From contig NZ_CALPBZ010000003.1 of assembly GCF_943181415.1 (NCBI RefSeq), forward strand, positions 62,001-126,000: a stretch of DNA of 64,000 nucleotides. Reading direction: 5' to 3'. Made by a program: the position numbers and the translations under genes. Shown here piece by piece: positions 1 to 36,546 of the stretch; position 1 is the stretch's first letter, and every line of letters starts with the position of its first letter. The notes under the pieces were generated by a model, which searched no databases, was not told the DNA's origin, and worked only from the letters and a program-made list of their open reading frames with translations. The stretch comes from Microbacterium sp. Marseille-Q6648 (GTDB taxonomy: Bacteria; Actinomycetota; Actinomycetes; Actinomycetales; Microbacteriaceae).

Positions 1-719
1 CGGTGACCCGACTCGCTCAGGTGAAGGGTCGCGTGGGGATGGTGCGCCTGGCGTTCGAGACGGCGCGTGAAGCGAATCCGTCCGCCCGGCTCGTGCTGAA
101 CGACTTCGACCTCAGCGCGGACTACGAGCGGCTGATCGAGGAATGCCTCGACGCCGGGGTGCAGATCGACGCCATCGGTCTGCAGACACATATGCACCAG
201 GGCTTCCGAGGCGAGGAGAACATCTGGAACATCCTCGAGCGATTCGCCCGCTTCGGCCTGCCGCTCCAGCTCACCGAGACGACATTGCTCTCGGGCGACC
301 TCATGCCGGCGGAGATCGTCGACCTGAACGACTATGTCATCGACTCATGGCCCTCCACGCCCGACGGTGAGGCCCGACAGGCCGACGAGCTCGTGCGGCA
401 CTACCGCACCGTCGTGGCGCACCCCGCCGTGGAGTCGCTCACCTATTGGGGGCTGACCGACGAGGGGTCATGGCTGGGGGCACCGTCGGGGCTCCTCCGT
501 TCCGACGCATCGCCCAAGCCGGCCTACGGTGCCCTGCGCGGCCTCATCCGCGGGGACTGGTGGCACGCTCCCCGGACGCTGCGTCCCGACGCGGACGGGC
601 TCGTCCGGGTGCGCGGGTTCGCGGGAGATTATCGCGTGACGACACCCCAGGGCTCCGCGCACTTCGCGGTTCCGGGCGCGGCCGACGGCTCTCCCGTGGA
701 GACTCGCCTGCGCGGCTGA
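1..719 (+). CDS. GH10 endo-1,4-beta-xylanase, C-terminal part (5' end outside window)
   Basis: Secreted or cell-associated glycoside hydrolase family 10 enzyme that cleaves beta-1,4-xylan. The visible part holds the last strands of the TIM barrel: the DAIGLQTHMHQ segment (beta-6/7 of GH10), LTETT carrying the presumed catalytic nucleophile glutamate (usually ITELD), and YWGLTDEGSWLG with the tryptophans that line the substrate cleft. After about residue 185 comes a short beta-rich tail (VRVRGFAGDYRVTTPQGSAHF) that may be a remnant accessory module. The reading frame is open to the window edge, so the GTG at position 3 is not a real start and the acid/base glutamate lies outside. LTETT instead of TELD is a small deviation common in distant GH10 members. 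Family call is confident; exact substrate is not. Confidence 0.85.
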   Translation, partial: VTRLAQVKGRVGMVRLAFETAREANPSARLVLNDFDLSADYERLIEECLDAGVQIDAIGLQTHMHQGFRGEENIWNILERFARFGLPLQLTETTLLSGDLMPAEIVDLNDYVIDSWPSTPDGEARQADELVRHYRTVVAHPAVESLTYWGLTDEGSWLGAPSGLLRSDASPKPAYGALRGLIRGDWWHAPRTLRPDADGLVRVRGFAGDYRVTTPQGSAHFAVPGAADGSPVETRLRG

Positions 720-749
720 CACGCCACGAGATCCGGCATACCGCGAGCC

Positions 750-793
750 GTCACGTGTGTCCGTCCGGATGCCGCCATGCGGACATCCGTGAC
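750..793 (+). terminator. imperfect stem-loop after the xylanase
   Basis: GTCACG at 750-755 pairs with CGTGAC at 788-793. Inside it TGTCCG pairs with CGGACA, separated from the outer stem by a 2-nt internal loop. It lies between the xylanase stop and the next promoter, as a terminator would. There is no T-run, so it may instead be a regulatory palindrome for the gene at 824. Confidence 0.35.
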
Positions 794-811
794 GTCTCGA
801 CGCCCGCGTGG

Positions 812-817
812 CACCAT
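812..817 (+). promoter_or_regulatory. -10 box CACCAT, leaderless start at 824
   Basis: CACCAT is followed by 6 nt and then the ATG at 824, with no Shine-Dalgarno sequence. It is a C-for-T variant of TANNNT; the same hexamer and spacing occur at 49733-49738. Confidence 0.45.
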
Positions 818-823
818 CGAGGC

Positions 824-1261
824 ATGAGCGAGAACACCGACGGATTCAGCGACGCCGAGCGCGCGGCCATGAAGCAGCGCGCGGCCGAGCTCCGGGCGCA
901 GAAGGGCGTCAAGGGCGCCGCGAAGAAGGAGAAGGAGCTCGCGGCCTGCCTCGAGGCCATCCAGGAGCTCACCGGGACGGATCGCACCATCGCCGAGCGG
1001 TTCCACGTCGTGGTGAGCGAGGAGGCGCCGCAGCTGGACCCGAAGACCTGGTACGGCTTCCCTTCCTACGCCCGCGACGGCAAGGTCGTGACCTTCGTGC
1101 AGCCGGCCGCGAAGTTCGACACCCGCTACGCCTCGATCGGCTTCAACGAAGATGCCCTCCTCGACGACGGGGCAATGTGGCCGACCGCGTTCGCCGTCGT
1201 GGAATGGACGGATGCGGTCGAGGCGACCCTCCGCGACGTCGTGCGCCGCGCCGCCGGCTGA
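824..1261 (+). CDS. DUF1801-family protein
   Basis: A 145-residue soluble protein. The N-terminal third (residues 8-45) is Lys/Ala/Glu-rich and helical. The rest is the DUF1801/YdhG-like domain with the recognisable PKTWYGFPSYARDGKVV and FNEDALLDDGAMWPT segments. Members have been annotated as iron chaperone-like by similarity to frataxin-type folds, but no activity can be read from the sequence. The start is the ATG at 824, six nt after a CACCAT box; upstream in-frame codons lie in the xylanase 3' region. It is transcribed alone and converges on the CPBP-like gene. Confidence 0.75.
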   Translation: MSENTDGFSDAERAAMKQRAAELRAQKGVKGAAKKEKELAACLEAIQELTGTDRTIAERFHVVVSEEAPQLDPKTWYGFPSYARDGKVVTFVQPAAKFDTRYASIGFNEDALLDDGAMWPTAFAVVEWTDAVEATLRDVVRRAAG

Positions 1262-1282
1262 CCCTCCCCGCTCACCCGCGCG

Positions 1283-2083
1283 TCACACCAGGAACAGCCC
1301 GTCCAGCACGCCGGGGTTGTGGGCGTGGACGAGAACCAGGAAGACCACGGCGTCGAACAGCAGGTGCACCGTCACGACGTAGGTGAGCGACCGGGTGCGC
1401 ATGAAGATGAAGCCCTGCAGCAGCGCGAACGGGATCGTCAGCAGCGGGCCCCAGGCCTGGTAGCCCAGCTCCCACAGGAACGACACGAACACGATCGCCT
1501 GCAGCAGATTGGCCTGCCAGAAGGGGAAGTGGCGCCGCAGCAGCGCCAGGCAGGTGCAGATGAAGAACAGCTCGTCCCAGATGCCCACGGCGCCGACGCC
1601 GACGAAGAGTCGCGCGATGAGGTCGGGGGTGTCCACGACCGGCCAGTTCTGATAGACCCCCGAGGTGATGAAGTAGAACGGCAGGATCAGCCACCCGAGC
1701 ACCAGCACGGCCACCAGCCACGTCCACTGGAAGGTCGTCCAGCGTCCTCCCCCGCGCCACGGGAACCGGATGGCGTGGTCGCGGTACACCCAGCGTGAGA
1801 TCGCGTAGGGCACGACGACCGCGCCGCCGAGGGCGAGGGCGAAGCGGAGGATGGCGAGGTTGTCGAGCTCGGCCTTCAGCGGGATGACGCTGACGATCAG
1901 CAGGCCGACCGCGACGAGCGAGAGGTCGCGTACGAGTGACGGGGCACGCCGCCCTGTCTCATCGGGGTCGGATGCGGGACGACCGCGCTCGATCAGCCAC
2001 GCGGTGACGAGGCCGGCCGCCAGCAGGCCCCAGCCGAGCCACGGCAGCAGCATGACGAAGAACGCGGGCGCGGCCAGGCACAC
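1283..2083 (-). CDS. CPBP-like multi-spanning membrane protein with degenerate active site
   Basis: About 266 residues with seven or eight hydrophobic segments. The C-terminal half resembles the CPBP (Abi/CAAX-type) intramembrane protease family: a WDELFFICTCLALL helix, then SFLWELGYQAWGPLL, then FMRTRSLTYVVTVHLLFD. Compared with the family motifs EExxxR, FxxxH and HxxxN/D, the first shows DE with no arginine, the second has Glu where His is expected, and only the third keeps HxxxD. Proteolytic function is therefore doubtful. The GTG at 2083 is the first plausible start, but the frame stays open upstream to the end of trmB, so the N terminus may be longer. It lies downstream of trmB in the same direction. 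Confidence 0.65.
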   Translation of the reverse strand: MCLAAPAFFVMLLPWLGWGLLAAGLVTAWLIERGRPASDPDETGRRAPSLVRDLSLVAVGLLIVSVIPLKAELDNLAILRFALALGGAVVVPYAISRWVYRDHAIRFPWRGGGRWTTFQWTWLVAVLVLGWLILPFYFITSGVYQNWPVVDTPDLIARLFVGVGAVGIWDELFFICTCLALLRRHFPFWQANLLQAIVFVSFLWELGYQAWGPLLTIPFALLQGFIFMRTRSLTYVVTVHLLFDAVVFLVLVHAHNPGVLDGLFLV

Positions 2084-2157
2084 CAGGATCGCGGGAGCGA
2101 GGTCCCACGACCACGCCGGGACGGTGCGGGTGGGAGCGAGGGCGGGGGGCGGGCATG

Positions 2158-2895
2158 TCAGGCCACCCGTCGGTAGGCGAGGTCGCGGATGTCACGGCCG
2201 GCGCGGGAGCCCTTTCGCTCGAAGGCCGTGAGCACGCGGCCGTCGAACCGCGGCGCCCAGTCCCCTTCGAACGCACGCTCGAACCCGTCCGCCTCGTCGA
2301 GCACGTCGCGCATCTGCAGCGCGTAGTCCTGCCAATCGGTCGCCAGGCGCAGTATCCCGCGCTCGCGCAGTGCCGTTCGGGCGGTTTCGGCGAACTCCGC
2401 CGTGACCAGACGGCGCTTGGTGTGCTTCTTCTTGTGCCACGGGTCGGGGAAGAAGACCCAGAGCTCGTCGAGGGATGCCGCCGGCAGAAGATGCTGCAGG
2501 ACTTCGGGCGCGTTGGCCTCGACCAGCCGCAGGTTGCCGACCCCCGCGCGCTCGGCATCGAGCATCGTCCGCGCCAGTCCCGCCCGGAAGACCTCGATGG
2601 CGAGGAAGTCGGTGTCGGGGGCGCCGGACGCGGCGTGCACGATGGCATGCCCCTGTCCCGATCCGATCTCGGCGATCAGCGGCGCGTGCCGACCCCACAC
2701 CTGGTGCGGGTCGATGGCTGCGCCCGGGCGGATGCTGGTGGCGGCGGCATCCCTCGGCGCAGCGATCACGAAGCGCGGGGCCAGCTCGCTCCACGCGCGC
2801 TCCTGCGCCTCGGACATGCGGCCGCTTCTGCGGACGAACGAGACGGGCCGCTCGCGAAAGCGGGGATGGGCCTCGCGGGCGGGAGTGTCGGTCAC
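2158..2895 (-). CDS. trmB: tRNA (guanine-N7-)-methyltransferase
   Basis: Adds a methyl group from S-adenosylmethionine to N7 of G46 in the variable loop of tRNA; cytosolic. The 245 residues show the Rossmann methyltransferase core: PLIAEIGSGQGHAIV (SAM-binding motif I, near residue 75) and the TrmB signature FFPDPWHKKKHTKRRL (near 150-165), followed by ATDWQDYALQM. The length matches actinobacterial TrmB, which carries a basic N-terminal extension. The start is the GTG at 2895, six nt after TAGCCT, with no ribosome binding site, so it is probably leaderless. Confidence 0.95.
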   Translation of the reverse strand: MTDTPAREAHPRFRERPVSFVRRSGRMSEAQERAWSELAPRFVIAAPRDAAATSIRPGAAIDPHQVWGRHAPLIAEIGSGQGHAIVHAASGAPDTDFLAIEVFRAGLARTMLDAERAGVGNLRLVEANAPEVLQHLLPAASLDELWVFFPDPWHKKKHTKRRLVTAEFAETARTALRERGILRLATDWQDYALQMRDVLDEADGFERAFEGDWAPRFDGRVLTAFERKGSRAGRDIRDLAYRRVA

Positions 2896-2901
2896 TCCCC
2901 C

Positions 2902-2907
2902 AGGCTA
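2902..2907 (-). promoter_or_regulatory. -10 box TAGCCT of trmB
   Basis: On the minus strand TAGCCT is followed by the 6-nt spacer GGGGGA and the GTG start at 2895. Confidence 0.55.
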
Positions 2908-2966
2908 CCCAGCCGCCGTCTTCTCCCGGCCCGGTCGAGGCCGTTCGGCCCGGTTCACGGCCCGGT

Positions 2967-3806
2967 TCACGGCTCGGTGACGAAGTCGATGAGCTCTTCC
3001 ACCCGGCCCAGAAGAGCAGGTTCCAGGTCGCGGTAGCTCTTCACGGACGCCAGGATCCGCTGCCATGCTCGTGCGAGGTCGGCCTGGTCGCGGGCCGGCC
3101 ACCCCAGGGCCCGGCACACCCCGGTCTTGTAGTCGATTCCCCGCGGCACGTCCGGCCACCGCGGGATCCCGACCGCGCGCGGTGTGACGCACTGCCAGAC
3201 ATCCACCCACGGGTGCCCCACGATCCGCACGTGCGCGCCGTGGGGCCCCCGGGCGACGGCATCGGAGATGCGCGACTCCTTGGACCCGGCGACGAGGTGG
3301 TCGACGAGCACACCGTAGCGGCGCTCCCGCGACGGGGGCTCGGCGTCGAGGGTCTCCGCGAGCAGGTCGATCCCCTGCAGGTACTCCACGACGACGCCTT
3401 CTGCCCGCAGATCGTCTCCCCACACCTTCTCGACGAGCTCGGCGTCGTGCCGCCCCTCGACGAGGATGCGGCTGGCGCGCGCCACCCGTGCGCGCGCGTC
3501 GGGCGCGGCGAACGAGCCCGAGGCGGTGCGTCTGGGGGCGGCGGGCGCGGCCCGCTTCTCGGGGGGATCGAGGATCACGTCGCGCCCGTCGATCAGGAAG
3601 CCGGGTCCGAGGGGGAACAATCGCCGCCTGCCGCGCCGGTCCTCGAGTTCGACCAGGCCCGCTGCGACGCCCACGACGGCGCCGCAGAAGCCGTCGTCGG
3701 CGACCTCAACGACCAGGTCGACGGATGCCGCAACCCGCGGCACCTGCTTCGCCGACCGCTCGCGCCACCCTGCTGCCAGCACGTCCGTTCCGTACCGATC
3801 GTCCAT
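2967..3806 (-). CDS. DUF3097-family protein (TOPRIM-like)
   Basis: 279 residues, a cytosolic protein of unknown function found widely in Actinobacteria. Residues 1-90 form a small beta-rich domain (VEVADDGFCGAVVGVAAGLVELEDRRGRRRLFPL). The second half begins with ASRILVEGRHDAELVEKVWGDD and contains YGVLVDHLVAGSKESRIS. The E...D/H and LVDH patterns resemble a TOPRIM fold, which would suggest nucleic-acid work, but this is only an inference. The gene starts at the ATG at 3806 behind a GGAGG ribosome binding site. It may be cotranscribed with trmB, although trmB has its own -10. Confidence 0.75.
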   Translation of the reverse strand: MDDRYGTDVLAAGWRERSAKQVPRVAASVDLVVEVADDGFCGAVVGVAAGLVELEDRRGRRRLFPLGPGFLIDGRDVILDPPEKRAAPAAPRRTASGSFAAPDARARVARASRILVEGRHDAELVEKVWGDDLRAEGVVVEYLQGIDLLAETLDAEPPSRERRYGVLVDHLVAGSKESRISDAVARGPHGAHVRIVGHPWVDVWQCVTPRAVGIPRWPDVPRGIDYKTGVCRALGWPARDQADLARAWQRILASVKSYRDLEPALLGRVEELIDFVTEP

Positions 3807-3820
3807 GTGTGCCTCCGGGT

Positions 3821-3832
3821 CGGAAAGGCTAC
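3821..3832 (-). promoter_or_regulatory. TAGCCT-type -10 region of the DUF3097 gene
   Basis: On the minus strand GGTAGCCT lies about 18 nt before the ATG at 3806, which would leave a short leader containing GGAGG. There is no recognisable -35. Confidence 0.35.
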
Positions 3833-3894
3833 CTTCCCGCCCCGGCCTGCCGGCGCAGACCCGCCGCCCCTACCCGTGGGCGACCGTGGCTGAA

Positions 3895-3900
3895 TAGACT
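3895..3900 (+). promoter_or_regulatory. -10 box TAGACT of the TPM-pspA operon
   Basis: TAGACT ends 35 nt before the ATG at 3936. The leader would be about 29 nt and contains the GGGGGAG ribosome binding site. No good -35 is visible. Confidence 0.45.
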
Positions 3901-3935
3901 CGCCAGGGGCGGGAACGCCGCGAAGGGGGAGACGG

Positions 3936-5984
3936 ATGCGCAAAGGGTGGACGACCGCGTTGACCCTGAGCGCGTGCGCGCTCATCGCGGGCGTCGGTGC
4001 AAGCGCGGCGGCGGCGACCGCACCCGTCCAGCTCGGCGCCGGGTACATCCTCGATGACGCCGGCGTCATGGACTCTTCGGGCGCGGCCGAGGCTCAGGAG
4101 CGCCTCGAGCAGCTGTACGCCGACACCGGCGTCGACCTCTACGCCGTGTTCGTCGACGAGTTCACCGACCCGGCTGACAGCGAGTCGTGGGCGAACACCG
4201 TGGCCGAGCAGAACGGGCTCGGTCCTTCCCAGTATCTGCTCGCGGTGGCCGTCGACTCCCGCCAGTACTACCTCTCGGCCGACAGCGCCGGTCCCCTCGC
4301 CGAGGACCAGGTCGTCCGGATCGAGGCGGACATCCGACCCGACCTGAGTGCGGAGGACTATTCGGGCGCCGTCATCGCCGCCGCCGACAGCATGTCGGCG
4401 GCGCTCGGAGACGACGCCGGAGCGCCCGGCGCGGCGCCGGGCGGGGGGTCCGGTTTCGGGACCGTCCTCATCCTCGCCGTGGTGCTCGGCGGCATCGCCC
4501 TCGTGGCATGGCTGTTCATCCGCCGTCGCCGGGCGAAGGCTGCTCCGGCCCCCGGCGGGCCCGGGCAGGCTCCTGTCGAGCAGGTGCCGACCGAGGAACT
4601 GCGTCGCCGCGCCGCGTCCGCCCTCGTCGAGACCGACGACGCCATCAAGACCAGCGAGCAGGAGCTCGGCTTCGCCCGCGCCCAGTTCGGCGACGAAGCC
4701 ACCGCCGCCTTCGTGGAGGCCCTGGCAGCCGCGCGGACCGACCTTGACGAGGCGTTCTCGCTGCAGCAGAAGCTCGATGACGGCGAGCCCGACACCGAGG
4801 AGCAGGTGCGGGCGTGGAACAGCCGCATCGTCGAGCTGTGCGAGCGCGCCAATACCCGCCTCGACGAGCGGGCCGCGGAGTTCGACGAGCTGCGCAAGCT
4901 CGAGCAGAACGCTCCCGAGGCCCTCGCGCGGGTCCAGGAGGCGCGGCAGCGAGCCGCGGCGACGGTCGAGCCGGCGCGCGAGCGCCTGGCGGGCCTGACG
5001 GAGCAGTACGCCCCGGAAGCGCTCGTCACCGTCGCCGACAACCCCGACCAGGCCGCCGACAGGCTGGAGTTCGCCGCCGCCGAACTCGCCGAGGCACAGC
5101 AGGCGCTCGGCGGTGGGGATGGCGGAGAGGCCGCCGTCAGCATCCGCGCGGCCGAGGATGCCGTCGCGCAGGCAGAGCAGCTGAGCGCTGCCGTCGACAC
5201 GCTGGCGGTCGATCTCGCTCTGGCCGAGAAGAACGCCACGGCGCTCATCGCCGAACTCGAGCAGGACGTCGCCGCCGCGAACGCGCTCCCCGACGCCGAC
5301 GGGCGGCTCGCCGCCGCGGTGACCGCCGCCCGCCAGCAGATCGACACCGCGCGCGGACAGCTCACCGGCGCCAAGCGGCCGCTCGCCGCACTCCAAGGTC
5401 TGGAAGCCGTCGACGACCAGATCGACGCCCTCATCCGCGCCGTGCGCGATGAGCAGTCCCAGGCTCAGCGAGCACGCCAGCTGCTCGCTCAGGTCATGAC
5501 CCAGGCCCACGCCCAGGTGCGCGCGGCGGAGGACTTCATCACCGCGCGCCGCGGTGCCGTCGGCGCCGAGGCCCGCACTCGGCTGGCCGAGGCCGGCGCG
5601 AGCCTGGTGCGCGCACGGCAGCTCGAGGCCTCCGACCCGCAGCAGGCGCTCGCACAGGCGCAGCGGGCCGAGCAGCTGGCCGCACAGGCGATCCAGTCCG
5701 CACAGAACGACGTCGGCGCCTTCGGAGGAATGGGAGGCGGCGGGATGTCCGGAGGAGGATCAGGCGGCATGCTGGGCGCGGTCTTCGGAGGCATCGTCTT
5801 GAACTCCGTCCTCGGCGGCGGCCGATCCTCCGGCGGAATGGGCGGGCTGGGCGGGCTCGGCGGGCTCGCGGGAGGCATGGGCGGGTTCGGCAGCACCGGC
5901 GGCGGTCGAAGCCGCGGCCGCATCAGCCCCGGCTCGTTCGGCGGCGGCGGCACGCGTGGCCGCCGCGGCGGCGGCAGGTTCTGA
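3936..5984 (+). CDS. TPM-domain membrane protein with long coiled coil and Gly-rich tail
   Basis: 682 residues. A signal peptide (residues 1-28, MRKGWTTALTLSACALIAGV then an Ala-rich end) leads to an extracytoplasmic TPM (YgcG/TPM_phosphatase) domain at about 33-155. Then come a Gly/Ala/Pro hinge and one transmembrane helix at about 172-196 (VLILAVVLGGIALVAWLF) capped by RRRR, so the rest is cytoplasmic. Residues 205-595 are almost wholly coiled coil; the last 85 are Gly/Ser/Arg-rich low complexity (GGMGGGGMSGGGSGG). It forms an operon with pspA 39 nt downstream, which suggests a role at the membrane in envelope stress. TPM domains elsewhere have been linked to photosystem repair and acid phosphatase activity; which applies here is unknown. 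Its cytoplasmic half is paralogous to the protein at 58159-59514. Confidence 0.85.
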   Translation: MRKGWTTALTLSACALIAGVGASAAAATAPVQLGAGYILDDAGVMDSSGAAEAQERLEQLYADTGVDLYAVFVDEFTDPADSESWANTVAEQNGLGPSQYLLAVAVDSRQYYLSADSAGPLAEDQVVRIEADIRPDLSAEDYSGAVIAAADSMSAALGDDAGAPGAAPGGGSGFGTVLILAVVLGGIALVAWLFIRRRRAKAAPAPGGPGQAPVEQVPTEELRRRAASALVETDDAIKTSEQELGFARAQFGDEATAAFVEALAAARTDLDEAFSLQQKLDDGEPDTEEQVRAWNSRIVELCERANTRLDERAAEFDELRKLEQNAPEALARVQEARQRAAATVEPARERLAGLTEQYAPEALVTVADNPDQAADRLEFAAAELAEAQQALGGGDGGEAAVSIRAAEDAVAQAEQLSAAVDTLAVDLALAEKNATALIAELEQDVAAANALPDADGRLAAAVTAARQQIDTARGQLTGAKRPLAALQGLEAVDDQIDALIRAVRDEQSQAQRARQLLAQVMTQAHAQVRAAEDFITARRGAVGAEARTRLAEAGASLVRARQLEASDPQQALAQAQRAEQLAAQAIQSAQNDVGAFGGMGGGGMSGGGSGGMLGAVFGGIVLNSVLGGGRSSGGMGGLGGLGGLAGGMGGFGSTGGGRSRGRISPGSFGGGGTRGRRGGGRF

Positions 5985-25849: not shown

Positions 25850-27112
25850 GGCGGCGGACACCTCTTGCGGCTCGCGCGCGGCCGGGGCGTCCGCGGCGTC
25901 CGCCCGGGAAGTCCGGCGCCGCTCGAGTGCGAGGCTGGCTCCGGCGATCGCCAGGCCGGCGAGGGCGAGCGCGACTCCCGCCCACGCGGGCGCGACGAAT
26001 CCCCATCCGGCGGCGATGACGGCACCTCCCAGGATCGCCCCGACGCTGTTGCCGATGTTCAGGGCCGAGTGGTTCAGCGCTGCGGCGATGGACTGGTTGT
26101 CACCCGCGACGTCCATCAGCCGGGTCTGGATCGTGGGGCTCAGCACCGACGCGACGACGCCGGTGGCGAAGACGAGGAGCGCGAGGGCCCACACCGACGC
26201 CGCGGTCACGGCGAGCAGGGCGAGGACGCCGGCGAGCGCGATCAACCCGCCGATGAGGGTGCGTCGCAGGTCGAGGTCGGCGAGGTAGCCGCCGGCGATG
26301 TTCCCCGCGGTCATTCCGACACCCATCACGACGAGGACGATCGGCACCGCCCAGGCGGGGCTTCCGGCGACCTCGGTGACCATCGGGGCGACATAGCTGT
26401 ACACCGCGAAGAATCCGCCGAAACCGACCGCTCCGATGCCGAGGGTCAGCCACACCTGGCCGATGCGGAAGACCGCGAGTTCGGCACGGAGGGTGCGCCC
26501 GGCGTCGCCGGGATGGGCGGGCACCGACGTGAAGATCGCCAGCGCCGCCAGGGCGAAGATCCCGACCACGACGAGGTACGCGGCGCGCCAGCCGAACTGC
26601 TGCCCGAGGAAGGTGCCGAGCGGCACGCCGATCACGTTGGCGATGGTGAGGCCGGTGAGGACGAAGGCGACGCCCTTCGCGCGCTTGCCCGGCCCGAGCA
26701 CGTCGGCGGCGACGAGGGCGCCGATGCCGAAGTAGGCCCCGTGCGGCAGTCCGGCCAGCAGCCGCGACAGCGCGACCGTCTCGAACGTGGGCATGACCAG
26801 GGTGAGCGCGTTGAAGAGGGTCAGCGCCAGGGCGAGGGCGACCATCACGCGGTGCCGCGGGAATCGGGCGACCGCGCCGGCGATCGTCGGTGCGCCGATC
26901 ACGACGCCCAGCGCGTACAAGCTGATGAGCCAGCCCGCCTGGGCGATGGCGTCCTCGGGCCTGGTCGCCCAGGCCTGCGGCAGCAGGTCCTGTGCGATGT
27001 CGGGGAGCAGGCCCATGACGACGAACTCGGTCATGCCGATGCCGAAGCTGCCGATGGCGAGCGAGAGGAGCGCCCTCATCGCCGCACCCCTCGACGAGGT
27101 CGAGGTGGTCAC
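25847..27112 (-). CDS. MFS transporter, AraJ/DHA1-like
   Basis: 421 residues, twelve transmembrane segments, of the small DHA1 type: ALLSLAIGSFGIGMTEFVVMGLLPDIA is the AraJ/YdhP-like opening, and LLAGLPHGAYFGIGALVAADV the helix-4 motif. It likely exports sugars or drugs; the substrate is unknown. A GTG at 27112 is supported by TAGCAT six nt upstream; a start at MRALLSL (27079) would be shorter by 11 residues. It ends in TAG, which doubles as part of the next promoter. Confidence 0.85.
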   Translation of the reverse strand: MTTSTSSRGAAMRALLSLAIGSFGIGMTEFVVMGLLPDIAQDLLPQAWATRPEDAIAQAGWLISLYALGVVIGAPTIAGAVARFPRHRVMVALALALTLFNALTLVMPTFETVALSRLLAGLPHGAYFGIGALVAADVLGPGKRAKGVAFVLTGLTIANVIGVPLGTFLGQQFGWRAAYLVVVGIFALAALAIFTSVPAHPGDAGRTLRAELAVFRIGQVWLTLGIGAVGFGGFFAVYSYVAPMVTEVAGSPAWAVPIVLVVMGVGMTAGNIAGGYLADLDLRRTLIGGLIALAGVLALLAVTAASVWALALLVFATGVVASVLSPTIQTRLMDVAGDNQSIAAALNHSALNIGNSVGAILGGAVIAAGWGFVAPAWAGVALALAGLAIAGASLALERRRTSRADAADAPAAREPQEVSAA

Positions 27113-27118
27113 GCGGTC

Positions 27119-27124
27119 ATGCTA
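27119..27124 (-). promoter_or_regulatory. -10 box TAGCAT of the DHA1 transporter gene
   Basis: TAGCAT, spacer GACCGC (6 nt), GTG 27112. Confidence 0.55.
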
Positions 27125-27173
27125 GCGCGCGGCGCGGCATCCGTCGAATCGATTCGGATGCCGCGACCGCGCC

Positions 27174-27503
27174 TCACGCCGGATCGGCCTCGTCGACCGC
27201 ACCCTCGCCGAGGGCCGACTCGAGCCGGTCGATCTTCGCTTCCAGTTCGCCGGTGTAGCCGGGCCGGATGTCAGCCTTCAGCACGAGCGAGACTCGGGAC
27301 CCGAAGGGCATGACCGCCTCGGTGGCGCGGCGGACGACGTCGAAGACCTCGTCCCACTCCCCCTCGATCTCGGTGAACATCGAGGTGGTGCGGTGCGGCA
27401 GTCCGCTGTCGCGGACGATGCGCACAGCGGCGGCGACGGCGTCGTGGACCGAGCCGTCCGAACGGCCGGTGCCGCTGGGAGCGACGGAGAAGGCGACGAG
27501 CAT
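27174..27503 (-). CDS. MTH1187-family thiamine-binding protein
   Basis: 109 residues. The DUF77/MTH1187 fold, a ferredoxin-like tetramer: MLVAFSVAPSG (strand 1), VHDAVAAAVRIVRDSGLPHRTTSMFTEIEGEWDEVFDVVRRATEAV and SRVSLVLKADIRPG. Family members such as YkoF relatives bind thiamine or its precursor in the cytosol. The gene begins 25 nt downstream of the GT87 gene with no separate promoter visible, so it is probably cotranscribed. A 47-bp gap separates it from the MFS promoter. Confidence 0.85.
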   Translation of the reverse strand: MLVAFSVAPSGTGRSDGSVHDAVAAAVRIVRDSGLPHRTTSMFTEIEGEWDEVFDVVRRATEAVMPFGSRVSLVLKADIRPGYTGELEAKIDRLESALGEGAVDEADPA

Positions 27504-33312: not shown

Positions 33313-33402
33313 CGGCAGGCGGCCTCGCGCGCGGCCGTGGGCCCTGTCCCGAGAGCCCGCTTGGTCCGACCCGGGGTCCCTGTCGCCCTACCGCGCCATG
33401 TC

Positions 33403-33675
33403 GCGGCATCCGCGCCAGGTTGCGGCATCCGCGCCACCTTCCGATACAGCGGATGCCGGAACGGGCCGCGGTCCGACACGTTCGCCCCACCACCGCACCA
33501 CCTCGCGGCATCCGCGCCACCGGTCGATACAGCGGATGCCGGAACGTGCCGCGGTCCGACACGTTCGCCCCACCACCGCGCCACCTCGCGGCATCCGCGC
33601 CACCCTCCGACACGTTCGCCACACCACCGCGCCATGTCGCGGCATCCGCGCCGTCAATCGGTACAGCGGATGCCG
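33403..33675. repeat. modular palindromic repeat cluster A
   Basis: Five copies of GCGGCATCCGCGCC start at 33403, 33422, 33505, 33588 and 33639, a spacing of 19, 83, 83 and 51. Three of them (33422, 33505, 33639) carry the inverted partner GCGGATGCCG beginning exactly 26 nt after the arm CGGCATCCGC, giving 10-bp stems with 16-nt loops. The 83-nt units also contain GGAACGTGCCGCGG and TCCGACACGTTCGCC segments. The 51 and 19 steps look like the unit with modules missing. This fills most of the 589-nt gap between the CNNM operon and the gene at 33815; the remainder shows only short hairpins. Confidence 0.8.
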
Positions 33676-33802
33676 GAACGTGCCGCGGCGGAGTGACGGG
33701 ACCGCCCTCCGGCCCTTGCACGCCGGCTCCTCCCCAGGAGGGATGCCTGGGGCAACCACCCACCGACCGGTCACCGAGCGCACAACACGGCCGTGTCGCG
33801 GC

Positions 33803-33808
33803 GAGAGT
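33803..33808 (+). promoter_or_regulatory. -10-like GAGAGT of the orphan winged-helix gene
   Basis: GAGAGT, 6 nt, GTG 33815. Confidence 0.4.
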
Positions 33809-33814
33809 GTCGGG

Positions 33815-34768
33815 GTGGCCCCGAACGACGCCCTTCCCCTCGAGGTGATCCGCCGATGCGAGCGCGACGATCCGATCGACGACCGAAGGCTCCGTGCGCT
33901 TCTGGCGGCCGGCGCGTGGGCGAAGATCGCGCCCGGATCGTTCGCCGTCTCGAGCGACTGGGACGGGCTGGCGCCGATCGAGCAACACCGGGTCCGGGTG
34001 CTCGAGGCGTGCCGGCGCATGCGACCCGGTGCCGTGGTCTCGCATCTCGCCGCCGCTGCCGTCTGGGGGATGGACATCCTCGGCGCGTGGCCGTCGACGG
34101 TGGATGTGACCGTCGCCCCCGCCCGGGGAGGGCGTTCGAGTGGACTGATCCGGCGCCATCCCGCATCGTCCGTGACGCCGCACACCGTGGATCTCGGCGC
34201 ACACCGCATCACCACGCCTGCGCAGACGGCCCTCGATCTCGCGCGTGTGCTCCCTTTCGCTCAGGGCGTCGCGGTCGTGGACCAGGCGATCTGGCAGGAC
34301 CGCGACGGCGGTCGGCTGACCACGCGCGACGACATCCTGGCCCGGCTGGACGGCCCCGGACATCGACGCGACCCTCGCGCGCTCCGCGCCATCGGGTTCG
34401 CCGGTGGCCGGTCGGAGAACCCCCGCGAGTCGCAGAGCCTCGTTGTGCTCGTCCGGCTCGGCTTCCCGCGCCCCCGCCAGCAGGAGCGCCGGGTCCTCCG
34501 GAGCGGCCGCCTCGTCTTCGGGGACTTCTACTTCCCCGAGCACGACCACTGGTGCGAGCTCGACGGAAGGGGGAAGTACCTGAGCCCGCAGTTCGGCACG
34601 GACCGCACGGCGGCCGAGATCGTCATCGACGAGAAGAACCGCGAGAACGAGATTCGCCGCGAGGTGCGCGGCTTCTCGCGCTGGGAGCCGGCCGACGCCG
34701 ACCACCCGCGACGCCTCTACGACATCCTGACCTCGGACGGCCTGCCCAGTTCTCTCCCCCGTCCGTAG
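33815..34768 (+). CDS. AbiEi-like winged-helix protein with PD-(D/E)xK-like C-terminal domain
   Basis: 317 residues. The N-terminal half resembles the antitoxin-type AbiEi domain of Actinobacteria: a short winged helix (ALLAAGAWAKIAPGSFAV) then RRMRPGAVVSHLAAAAVWGM and TTPAQTALDLARVLPFAQGVAVVDQAI. The C-terminal 110 residues have FGDFYFPEHDHWCELDGRGKY, where D, E-x-D and K fall as in DUF559/Vsr-like endonuclease folds, followed by EKNRENEIRREVRGFSRWEP. No AbiEii-type toxin gene is next to it, so it is an orphan. Repeat clusters flank it on both sides. Start GTG 33815. Function unknown; nuclease activity is inferred from motif layout only. Confidence 0.65.
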   Translation: MAPNDALPLEVIRRCERDDPIDDRRLRALLAAGAWAKIAPGSFAVSSDWDGLAPIEQHRVRVLEACRRMRPGAVVSHLAAAAVWGMDILGAWPSTVDVTVAPARGGRSSGLIRRHPASSVTPHTVDLGAHRITTPAQTALDLARVLPFAQGVAVVDQAIWQDRDGGRLTTRDDILARLDGPGHRRDPRALRAIGFAGGRSENPRESQSLVVLVRLGFPRPRQQERRVLRSGRLVFGDFYFPEHDHWCELDGRGKYLSPQFGTDRTAAEIVIDEKNRENEIRREVRGFSRWEPADADHPRRLYDILTSDGLPSSLPRP

Positions 34769-34806
34769 CCACCCTCGACGCCGCCGTCGCCCTCCCGCGG
34801 CAGATC

Positions 34807-35046
34807 GCGGTGTCCGCGCCAGGTCGCGGCATCCGCGCCACCTTCCGACGCGTTCACCACATGGCCGCGCCACCTTCCGACGTTCGTCGCCCATCCGCGC
34901 CAGCTCGCGGCATCCGCGCCACCTTCCGACGCGTTCACCACATGGCCGCGCCACGTTTGCGGCATCCGCGCCACCTTCCGACGCGTTCGCCACACTGCCG
35001 CGCCAGGTTGCGGCATCCGCGGCGCCGATCGATACCGCGGATGCCG
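34807..35046. repeat. modular palindromic repeat cluster B
   Basis: The same 14-mer (first copy with two changes) begins at 34807, 34826, 34907, 34959 and 35010, a spacing of 19, 81, 52 and 51, echoing cluster A. The last copy has its inverted partner at 35037-35046, again 26 nt after the arm, and here the stem extends to 13 bp (GCGGCATCCGCGG with CCGCGGATGCCGC). Units carry TTCCGACGCGTTCACC instead of the ACACGTTCGCC of cluster A. It fills the gap between the orphan gene and guaB1 and has the same orientation as cluster A. Confidence 0.8.
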
Positions 35047-35079
35047 CGATGTGCCGCGCCGGTGTGAAACCGCCACGGG

Positions 35080-36546
35080 TCACCAGCTGACGGGGAGCGC
35101 CTTCCCCTCCTCGTAGCCGGCGGCCGACTGAAGTCCGACGCGGGCGCGCTCGCGGAACTCGGGCACGGACGCGGCCCCGGCGTAGGTGAACGACGAGCGG
35201 ACGCCCGAGGTGATCATGTCGATCAGGTCCTCGATGCCGGGGCGCAGCGGGTCGAGGTAGATGCGCGACGACGAGATCCCCTCGGCGAACAGCTCTTTGC
35301 GGGCCAGCTCGTACGGGTCGAGGCGCCCGAACCGGTCGTGCACCGCCTTCGTCGAGGCCATCCCCCACGACTCCTTGTATGCCCGGCCGTCCGCGTCGAG
35401 CTGCAGCTCGCCGGGAGCTTCGATGGTTCCGGCGAACCACGACCCGATCATGACGGATGCCGCACCCGCCGCCAGGGCCAGAGCGACGTCGCGGGGGTAG
35501 CGGACTCCCCCGTCCGCCCAGACGTGCGCACCATGGCCGCGCGCGGCCTCGGCGGTCTCGAGGACGGCGGAGAACTGGGGACGCCCGACAGCCGTCATCA
35601 TGCGGGTCGTGCACATCGCGCCCGGGCCCACACCGACCTTGAGGATGCCGGCCCCGGCGGCCACGAGGTCGTCGACGCCGTCGGCGGTGACGATGTTGCC
35701 CGCGGCGACGGGTATGTCCAGGCCCGCGCCGGCGACGGCCTGGAGCGCGCGCAGCATCCCCTCCTGGTGACCGTGCGCGGTGTCGACCACGAGGACATCG
35801 ACGCCGGCCGCGGCGAGCGCGGTCGCCTTGGCCGCGACATCGCCGTTGATCCCGACCGCAGCGGCGACGATGAGGCGACCCGACGCGTCGACCGCGGGCC
35901 GGTAGAGGGTGGAGCGCAGGGCGCTGCGGCGCGAGAGCGTGCCGACGAGGTGGCCGCGGTGGAGCACGCACACGGTGTCGGCGCCGGTGGCGACGATGAG
36001 GTCGAATGCCGTGCGCGCACTGTCGACGTCGTCGGCGTCGATCGAGGCCGACCTGCCGCGGGCGAGATCCCCGAGGCGGGCGTCGGGGAGTGCTGTGCCG
36101 AGGCGCAGCGCGGGGACGATGCCGAGGATGTCGTCGACGGCGATGCCCTCGGCGGGTGCGTGCGACGCGTCGGCGACGACGATGCCGTGCCCCTCCGTGG
36201 CGGGCAGGAGGCGGGCGGCGTCGGCCACCGTCGCCTCGGGAGGAAGCACGAGGGCGGTGTCCCATGTGACGGGCTGGGACTTGACCCATCGGATGGCCGC
36301 ATCGAGCTCTTGGAGGGGCATGTCCTGCGGCAGCACGCCGAGTCCGCCGCGTCGGGCGAGGGTGGCGGCGAGCCGCGCCCCGGTGACCGAGTTCATGTTC
36401 GCCGAGACCAGCGGGATCGTCGCCGCCGTGCCGTCTCGAGGCGACAGGTCGACGTCCAGGCGGCTGGCGACGCCGGAGCGTCGCGGCACCAGGAAGACGT
36501 CCGAGTAGGTCAGGTCGACGACGGGCCGCTCTCCGTAGAACTCCAC
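35080..36546 (-). CDS. guaB1: GuaB1-family IMP dehydrogenase-related protein (probable GMP reductase)
   Basis: 488 residues of the IMPDH/GMPR barrel. The catalytic cysteine loop GVGPGAMCTTRMMTAVGRPQ (near 305-325) and GIVVADAS plus the VDDVD region show the barrel with an inserted CBS pair (about 95-205). Mycobacterial GuaB1 is reported to be a GMP reductase, converting GMP to IMP in purine salvage; the same is likely here but the sequence alone does not prove it. The GTG start follows TAATCT by 6 nt; an ATG at 36550 is out of frame. Divergent from kgd. Confidence 0.88.
   Translation of the reverse strand: MEFYGERPVVDLTYSDVFLVPRRSGVASRLDVDLSPRDGTAATIPLVSANMNSVTGARLAATLARRGGLGVLPQDMPLQELDAAIRWVKSQPVTWDTALVLPPEATVADAARLLPATEGHGIVVADASHAPAEGIAVDDILGIVPALRLGTALPDARLGDLARGRSASIDADDVDSARTAFDLIVATGADTVCVLHRGHLVGTLSRRSALRSTLYRPAVDASGRLIVAAAVGINGDVAAKATALAAAGVDVLVVDTAHGHQEGMLRALQAVAGAGLDIPVAAGNIVTADGVDDLVAAGAGILKVGVGPGAMCTTRMMTAVGRPQFSAVLETAEAARGHGAHVWADGGVRYPRDVALALAAGAASVMIGSWFAGTIEAPGELQLDADGRAYKESWGMASTKAVHDRFGRLDPYELARKELFAEGISSSRIYLDPLRPGIEDLIDMITSGVRSSFTYAGAASVPEFRERARVGLQSAAGYEEGKALPVSW

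What the first reader, a model, noticed from the sequence alone, without database searches (positions are those of the whole stretch)
33403..35046. A modular REP-like repeat family in two clusters around one orphan gene
Seen directly: ten copies of GCGGCATCCGCGCC (one with two changes) in two clusters, with copy-to-copy steps of 19, 83, 83, 51 and 19, 81, 52, 51. Four copies carry an inverted partner placed exactly 26 nt after the first arm, each a 10-bp stem with a 16-nt loop, while the loop centres differ. The repeated steps suggest units built from interchangeable modules, some lost. Both clusters have the same orientation and lie outside genes. REP/BIME elements mobilised by a RAYT transposase look similar, but no transposase is in this window. 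It could also be a protein or RNA binding array tied to the gene between the clusters.
Basis: seen in the sequence. Interest (0 to 1): 0.7.

Follow-up and report, generated by a model that had tools for sequence, protein, structure and literature searches.

The report
Bacterial genome-wide signal word in arrays
The repeats are arrays of an intergenic palindrome whose arms, in this Microbacterium-like bacterium, carry an eight-letter DNA word found thousands of times across its genome, and related species use spelling variants of that word, as if it were a label on their own DNA.

Summary
The clusters are arrays of a real repeat family: a ~78-nt near-perfect palindrome plus ~51-nt tandem half-units. 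I found 12 full copies in about eight arrays of this genome; the model matched 18 of 59 same-genus genomes. It is REP-like, but no Y1/RAYT transposase was detected, and it is not tied to the gene between the clusters.

The larger result lies outside the coordinates. The arm word, GGATGCCG/CGGCATCC, occurs 3,466 times in 3.49 Mb (reversed word: 185), on both strands alike, often through rare synonymous codons, and is kept between species. High density (0.8 per kb or more) was seen only in this family; 184 other genomes of the order stayed below 0.3. Some relatives use dialects: GGATGCGG, GGATGCCG with GGATGCTG, GGATCCG, GCGGATC.

Density, strand balance and dialects resemble the DNA uptake sequences of Neisseriaceae. 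Chi, KOPS and HIP1 each fail a tested feature. Against it: no uptake test or receptor, ComEC also in word-poor genomes, and in relatives most palindromes lack the genome's word in their arms (21 of 31). The uptake-like reading is best at about 0.42. Ten literature searches showed no report of the word.

The parts
33395..33698 (+). Cluster 1: five heads (33403, 33422, 33505, 33588, 33639) and three inverted tails (33449, 33532, 33666); divergent spacer upstream of the AbiEi-like gene
33410..33472 (+). Palindrome copy 1, cut short (head 33422, tail 33449)
   Evidence: 66.4 bits, model positions 13-75
33481..33578 (+). Palindrome copy 2 (head 33505, tail 33532)
   Evidence: 84.6 bits
33615..33712 (+). 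Palindrome copy 3 (head 33639, tail 33666), closes cluster 1
   Evidence: 95.4 bits; DNA fold z -3.6
33815..34768 (+). Gene between the clusters, 317 aa, weak AbiEi_1-like match (below cut-off); absent with both clusters from relative G310
34797..35067 (+). Cluster 2: five heads (34807 degenerate, 34826, 34907, 34959, 35010) and one tail (35037); spacer between convergent genes
34986..35083 (+). Palindrome copy 4 (head 35010, tail 35037), closes cluster 2
   Evidence: 98.5 bits; DNA fold z -3.7
27101..27184 (-). Divergent single palindrome with the same arm word and another loop
   Evidence: (34.4 bits)
35080..36546 (-). IMPDH-like gene convergent to cluster 2; anchor for the synteny comparison (name recognised by eye, no family search made)

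Best explanation
Shown: the clusters are arrays of a Microbacterium-type intergenic palindrome (full form about 78 nt; tandem half-units of about 51 nt closed by a full palindrome). In this genome the arm core is the genome's signal word GGATGCCG. That word is present at about 1 per kb on both strands, is favoured at the DNA level inside genes, is shared by most sampled genomes of the genus, and is replaced in some lineages by spelling variants (dialects). Inferred: the word works like the DNA uptake sequences of Neisseriaceae and Pasteurellaceae. A receptor or a recombination step favours DNA bearing the self word, so the word spreads by repeated transformation among kin. The palindromes, found most often between convergent genes, act as two-way transcription ends; in this genome they also hold inverted pairs of the word. 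The arrays grew by slippage or unequal recombination between half-units.
For: Own genome: 1773 + 1693 copies against 102 + 83 for the reversed word. Changes at positions 2-9 of CGGATGCCG give counts near expectation, except C8T (10 against 3.3). First-ranked 8-mer by z in the own and G106 samples. No leading/lagging bias in 460 kb of closed G106: 303 to 332, p = 0.27. Genes: 348 copies against 65 expected; spacers: 55 (13 of them in the two clusters) against 10.7. Ala GCA 60 of 79 in word context, 6% elsewhere; Asp GAT 125 of 189, 16% elsewhere; His CAT 12 of 16, 15% elsewhere. The codon effect moves with the dialect: GAT before GCC/GCG 0.66/0.36 in G000, 0.46/0.93 in G332. Intact at 22 of 44 sites aligned with G310, against 20% for words of the same composition. 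Dialects. Palindromes in convergent spacers 15 of 30, against 16% of spacer length, p = 1.6e-5. Microbacterium reported as transformed by a free plasmid in mixed culture (PMC10257627, abstract and passages).
Against: ComEC is in 12 of 12 genomes tried, word-poor ones included, so it does not track the word. Close pairs of the plain word show no orientation preference, unlike inverted DUS pairs. In 17 relatives, 21 of 31 examined palindromes carry the genome's word in neither arm, 3 in one and 7 in both (one of the 7 lies inside a called gene); so the word in the arms is not a rule of the family. Word density is the same in genomes with and without the palindrome (medians 0.99 and 1.04 per kb). 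No T tract after the stems (sequence). Paired positions show no compensatory excess. In some other families of the order the word exceeds its reversed control several-fold (G400: 534 against 67), so low-level excess is not unique. No receptor is known, and no uptake test was possible.
Confidence: 0.42

Rival explanations
1. Chi-like recombination signal: the word stops an AddAB-, AdnAB- or RecBCD-type nuclease at double-strand ends and promotes RecA loading. Dialects follow changes in the nuclease.
For: An 8-mer at about 1 per kb, thinner in three atypical low-GC blocks (6, 5 and 4 copies in 20 kb each). Chi words also differ between bacteria (PMC8022716, passages).
Against: No leading-strand polarity: 303 to 332 in G106. 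RecC (PF04257) found in 0 of 12 genomes. AddAB and AdnAB were not searched.
Confidence: 0.25
2. A DNA-binding, methylation or repair system keeps the word frequent (HIP1-like, or a nucleoid-protein site), with no role in transfer.
For: HIP1 in cyanobacteria is a high-frequency octamer linked with methyltransferases (PMC4390886, start of abstract). G164 and both g35 genomes use palindromic CGGATCCG forms.
Against: GGATGCCG is not a palindrome. A short methylation site inside the word would not by itself hold all eight positions (inference). No methylome was available.
Confidence: 0.2
3. The arrays are an orphan REP/REPIN-type family whose transposase was lost or never existed here; the genome-wide word is a separate matter that entered its arms in some species. 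This can be true together with any reading of the word.
For: Palindromes matched in 18 of 59 genomes with variable arms. In relatives 21 of 31 elements lack the genome's word in both arms. Word density does not depend on the palindrome.
Against: No Y1 transposase in the genome. In G000 the word is in both arms of 9 of 12 full copies and in one arm of the other 3. In G332, whose word is GGATGCGG, both examined elements carry that spelling in both arms. A second, unrelated 104-nt repeat of this genome carries the word once per unit.
Confidence: 0.38
4. The array is a local regulator (protein or RNA binding array) of the gene between the clusters.
For: Both clusters flank the gene in one orientation; a second locus (L028) has the same layout around an SDR-like gene.
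Against: The other four arrays of the genome do not have this layout; a homologue in L102 lacks the array; no promoter-like site and no Rfam family over its threshold.
Confidence: 0.05
5. Composition or codon bias alone produces the excess of the word.
For: High-GC genome; GGC-ATC (Gly-Ile) codons are common, and 124 copies sit in that phase with no codon signal to read.
Against: Excess over order-3 and order-4 models; rare codons in word context; dialects swap one base between related species and the codon effect moves with them.
Confidence: 0.02

Closest known systems
DNA uptake sequences (DUS) of Neisseriaceae and USS of Pasteurellaceae
   Same: Short exact word, highly over-represented, in genes and spacers, family-restricted at high density; dialects with a shared core; inverted pairs at gene ends are described for DUS (PMC3630211, passages). 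The density of about 1 per kb for DUS is recalled.
   Different: High-GC Gram-positive family; no receptor or uptake test; a deletion dialect (GGATCCG) as well as substitutions; close pairs of the plain word show no inverted preference
REP/REPIN elements
   Same: Short intergenic palindromes, singly and in arrays, with species-specific variants
   Different: No Y1/RAYT transposase detected; arrays are direct half-units closed by one palindrome; in this genome the arms hold a word that exists mostly outside the element
Chi sites
   Same: Over-represented octamer that varies between lineages
   Different: No strand polarity here; no RecC in 12 genomes
HIP1 of cyanobacteria
   Same: High-frequency octamer over the whole genome
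   Different: HIP1 (GCGATCGC) is palindromic; GGATGCCG is not

Membership tests
REP/REPIN-RAYT | Y1/RAYT transposase in the genome | tested here: not met
   PF01797 in 0 of 1 genome; rings in 5 of 14 controls
REP/REPIN-RAYT | short intergenic palindromes in multiple copies | tested here: met
   12 full copies, one arm-to-arm span of 34 nt
DUS/USS | exact short word greatly over-represented genome-wide | tested here: met
   3466 against 185; most single-base variants near chance
DUS/USS | no replication-strand bias (recalled as a DUS trait) | tested here: met
   303 to 332, p = 0.27 in G106
DUS/USS | lineage dialects sharing a core | tested here: met
   GGATGCCG, GGATGCGG, GGATGCTG, GGATCCG, GCGGATC
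DUS/USS | inverted pairs at transcription ends | tested here: inconclusive
   palindromes favour convergent spacers, 15 of 30, but in relatives most lack the word in their arms, and plain close pairs show no preference
DUS/USS | DNA uptake machinery present | tested here: inconclusive
   ComEC in 12 of 12, word-poor genomes included
DUS/USS | word raises DNA uptake or transformation | not testable with these tools
   needs an experiment
DUS/USS | word-specific receptor (ComP-like) | not tested
   no candidate was sought
Chi | polarity on the leading strand | tested here: not met
   feature from PMC8022716 passages
Chi | RecBCD present | tested here: not met
   RecC PF04257 in 0 of 12 genomes; AddAB and AdnAB not tested
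KOPS | strong strand skew towards the terminus (recalled) | tested here: not met
HIP1-type | word is a palindrome | tested here: not met
   GGATGCCG is not a palindrome; the dialect CGGATCCG is
intrinsic terminator | stem followed by T tract | tested here: not met
   no T tract after the stems; the scan, which allows loops of 3-8 only, found one unrelated site at 34510

The most novel reading that the evidence does not exclude
A Gram-positive bacterial family marks its own DNA with a self-recognition word and lineage dialects, analogous to the neisserial uptake language but of independent origin. In this species the palindromic arrays are one place where the word accumulates. Dialect switches, including a one-base deletion, would set barriers to gene exchange between neighbouring Microbacterium species.
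Probability: 0.4. Interest if true: 0.93.

Novelty: new variant of a known kind. Interest (0 to 1): 0.77.

Why it matters
Uptake words are described for naturally competent Pasteurellaceae and Neisseriaceae (PMC7811141, start of abstract). A third case, in an actinobacterial family with several dialects within one genus, would allow direct tests of how such words arise, spread and isolate species. Either way the word may serve as a marker of self and foreign DNA in this family.

Tried and rejected
The first search for relatives of the gene between the clusters used the wrong reading frame and found nothing; the frame was then corrected to start at 33815. Plasmid collection: no match. Covariation in the palindrome: no excess (3 pairs changed on both sides against 5.8 in shuffles), so no RNA-structure claim is made. 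Rfam: four microRNA matches below their gathering scores, taken as chance. Even spacing of the word: variance/mean per 2 kb 1.14 (G106) and 0.90 (own, three low-GC blocks left out), so random-like. CRISPR: rejected, because the stretches between arms are themselves repeated. Palindrome presence against word density: no link.

Rows dropped or selected. The arm pattern also hit L050:12723 in the own genome, with a span of 28 instead of 34 and inside a called gene; I do not count it as a copy. Loci were picked by a pattern that contains the word, so they were left out of the context and arm tests. The end of C2/start of C6 and C3:366.9k were left out because a neighbour gene is not in view, and two relatives' elements because one lies at a locus end and one in a called gene. 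The covariance model was built from own copies that carry the word, so it favours such copies. The search used stricter filters and can miss weak copies. The script had a wrong pattern and was redone. Expected counts part c were made on joined stretches, so a few false words at joins are possible. Sizes of most G genomes are rounded by the tool, so densities are approximate. Not done: a species tree for the dialects, a search for a receptor, AddAB/AdnAB or methyltransferases.

Full report
WHAT IS IN THE WINDOW. The window is contig C3:62001-126000 of a 3.49-Mb genome in 8 contigs. Of 39 named stretches with the exact hairpin pattern, 20 are Microbacterium, 6 other Microbacteriaceae (two Agromyces; Leifsonia, Okibacterium, Cryobacterium and an unnamed member) and 13 scattered elsewhere; so I read the host as Microbacterium and the family as Microbacteriaceae (inference). 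Cluster 1 lies between divergent genes; cluster 2 between the convergent AbiEi-like and IMPDH-like genes. The match of the gene between them to AbiEi_1 is weak (E 0.036, below cut-off).

THE ELEMENT. The same units recur in this genome at C1:858.8k (L026), twice in C2:444-445k (L028), at the end of C2 and the start of C6 (L029, L031; probably one array cut by the contig break, an inference), at C3:332.0k (L030) and C3:366.9k (L269). The full form is a near-perfect palindrome of about 78 nt. I found 12 full copies, all with one span: 9-nt arms with 16 nt between; one more hit of the same search, with a span of 28, lies inside a gene and is not counted. The tandem form repeats the left half every 51-52 nt, in several arrays straight after a stop codon, and a full palindrome closes the array. 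Pairing reflects conserved sequence; there is no compensatory excess. A covariance model of ten copies matches 18 of 59 same-genus genomes, with 27 hits in the own genome counted on both strands. In other species the outer frame and, in many, a CGATCGATG-like centre persist while the arm core changes. Of 30 spacers that hold an element found without the word pattern, 15 are convergent, 10 tandem and 5 divergent; convergent spacers make up 16% of spacer length in this genome's sample (p = 1.6e-5; relatives alone 12 of 24, p = 1e-4; genes by my own finder).

PRESENCE AND ABSENCE. In the relative G310 (81% identity over 52.6 kb aligned) the alignment jumps from 33319 to 35079 with about 50 bases in between: both clusters and the gene are absent together. 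A homologue of the gene sits beside the IMPDH gene in L102 without an array in the part shown, and one palindrome without such a gene sits there in L105. Gene and array are therefore separable.

THE WORD. Outside the clusters the arm core is itself in excess: 99 GGATGCCG in 88 kb against 15 expected; genome-wide 1773 + 1693 against 102 + 83 for the reversed word. Substitutions at positions 2-9 of CGGATGCCG give counts near expectation, with one exception (CGGATGCTG, 10 against 3.3); position 1 is nearly free. It is the top 8-mer by z of the own sample (405 against 77, 464 kb) and of G106 (635 against 99, 460 kb). Strands are balanced along contig C1 and, in the closed genome G106, between leading and lagging strands (303 to 332, p = 0.27; the record begins with a gene that I recognise as dnaA by eye, and the terminus is taken at mid-length). 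Of 405 copies in the own sample, 348 are in called genes, 55 in spacers and 2 at edges; 13 of the 55 are in the two clusters.

DNA-LEVEL FORCE. Where amino acids allow the word, rare codons are chosen: Ala GCA 60 of 79 (39 of 197 before TCC without the CG, 1102 of 17827 elsewhere); Asp GAT 125 of 189 (64 of 339 in near contexts, 1286 of 7931 elsewhere); His CAT 12 of 16 (373 of 2545 elsewhere). Between the window and G310, 22 of 44 aligned copies are intact, against 22% for all 8-mers and 20% for words of the same composition; the rate is the highest of 109 frequent words, tied with GCCGAGGC. Three atypical low-GC blocks of the C1 sample hold 6, 5 and 4 copies per 20 kb (1.5-2.3 expected locally); the other 17 blocks hold 11 to 27 (2.1-3.0 expected).

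DIALECTS. In 299 genomes of the family, copies run from 14 to 4831. Taking one genome for each of 85 genera, 9 have at least 0.8 per kb, 16 have 0.5-0.8, 13 have 0.3-0.5 and 47 less. In 198 genomes of the order, the 184 from other families stay at or below about 0.29 per kb by my reading of the table; some of these still exceed the reversed control several-fold (G400: 534 against 67). In 59 same-genus genomes, 40 have at least 0.8 per kb, 7 have 0.5-0.8, 5 have 0.3-0.5 and 7 less. Two of the 59, G332 and G535, instead have GGATGCGG at 1.31 and 1.14 per kb; the next highest is 0.35. G535 is mixed (in 100 kb GGATGCGG 79 against 12, GGATGCCG 45 against 16, GGATGCTG 23 against 8). G331 has GGATGCCG 70 against 19 and GGATGCTG 63 against 15 in 100 kb. 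G164 has GGATCCG 618 against 225 in 400 kb and GGATGCCG at chance (55 against 52). G051, of another genus, has GCGGATC 107 against 19 in 280 kb. The two genomes drawn from genus g35 hold 1510 and 1635 CGGATCCG; 141 of the 150 genomes searched hold fewer than 400. The codon effect follows the spelling: GAT before GCC/GCG is 0.66/0.36 in G000, 0.46/0.93 in G332, 0.57/0.89 in G535 and 0.27/0.34 in G164, whose background is 0.26. This is hard to explain by composition.

LINK BETWEEN WORD AND PALINDROME. In the own genome 9 of 12 full copies carry the word in both arms and 3 in one arm. In G332 both examined elements carry that genome's own spelling, GGATGCGG, in both arms, and a single arm beside its IMPDH gene does too (L107). 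But over 17 relatives, of 31 examined elements only 7 carry the genome's word in both arms (G328, G311 twice, G332 twice, G334, and one in G526 that lies in a called gene), 3 in one arm and 21 in neither (G528 0 of 5, G535 0 of 3, G331 0 of 2, G301 0 of 2, G316 0 of 2, and others). Word density is the same with and without palindromes. A second, unrelated repeat of about 104 nt at C1:197.8-198.2k carries the word once per unit. So the word does not come from the palindrome, and the palindrome does not need the word; in this genome they have met.

FUNCTION. Several features of DNA uptake sequences are met (exact word, strand balance, dialects), one is in doubt (inverted pairs), and the machinery test is uninformative (ComEC in 12 of 12). 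Chi is weakened by the absence of polarity and of RecC (0 of 12); PMC8022716 gives polarity as a Chi feature in E. coli (passages). KOPS needs skew (recalled); HIP1 is a palindrome. Microbacterium is reported as transformed by a free plasmid in a mixed culture (PMC10257627, abstract and passages), and the actinobacterium Micrococcus luteus takes up DNA with Flp pili and has comEA and comEC homologues (PMC6370729, passages). The uptake-like reading is the best one, not a shown one.

PRINT. No paper on this word was seen in ten searches (listings of at most 20 papers each, in an open-access library that lacks most subscription journals). For PMC3630211, PMC8022716, PMC6370729 and PMC10257627 I saw passages; for PMC4390886 the start of the abstract in listings and a find call without hits; for PMC7811141 the start of the abstract.

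Noticed in passing
L268 (G000:C1:197400-198600), about 350-870: A different tandem hairpin repeat of about 104 nt in an intergenic region, with GGATGCCG once per unit.
   Followed up: partly
L028:3480-5030: A second pair of array clusters flanking one gene (SDR-like, named by eye) in the same orientation, the same layout as in the window.
   Followed up: partly
L042, L049, L051 (contig C1 near 560, 1120 and 1280 kb): Low-GC blocks with few genes by the host codon model and few copies of the word; perhaps acquired islands.
   Followed up: no
G538, and G330, G324, G335, G531: Same-genus genomes poor in GGATGCCG (0.15-0.29 per kb) and not rich in GGATGCGG; they may hold further dialects.
   Followed up: no
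G126: Holds both many GGATGCCG (3363) and many CGGATCCG (1154): a possible mixed or changing dialect.
   Followed up: no
L177 (G528:C1 near 1794 kb): Five palindromes in tandem at steps of about 166 nt in one convergent spacer.
   Followed up: no
G063 sample, L156-L165: Over-represented GAGCCTGTC and GGTTTCGAC words, which may be another dispersed repeat.
   Followed up: no
L183 (G301), L185 (G533), L189 (G315): Palindromes of the same outer frame with arm cores built on CGCTCGCAG or a relative of it instead of the genome-wide word.
   Followed up: partly
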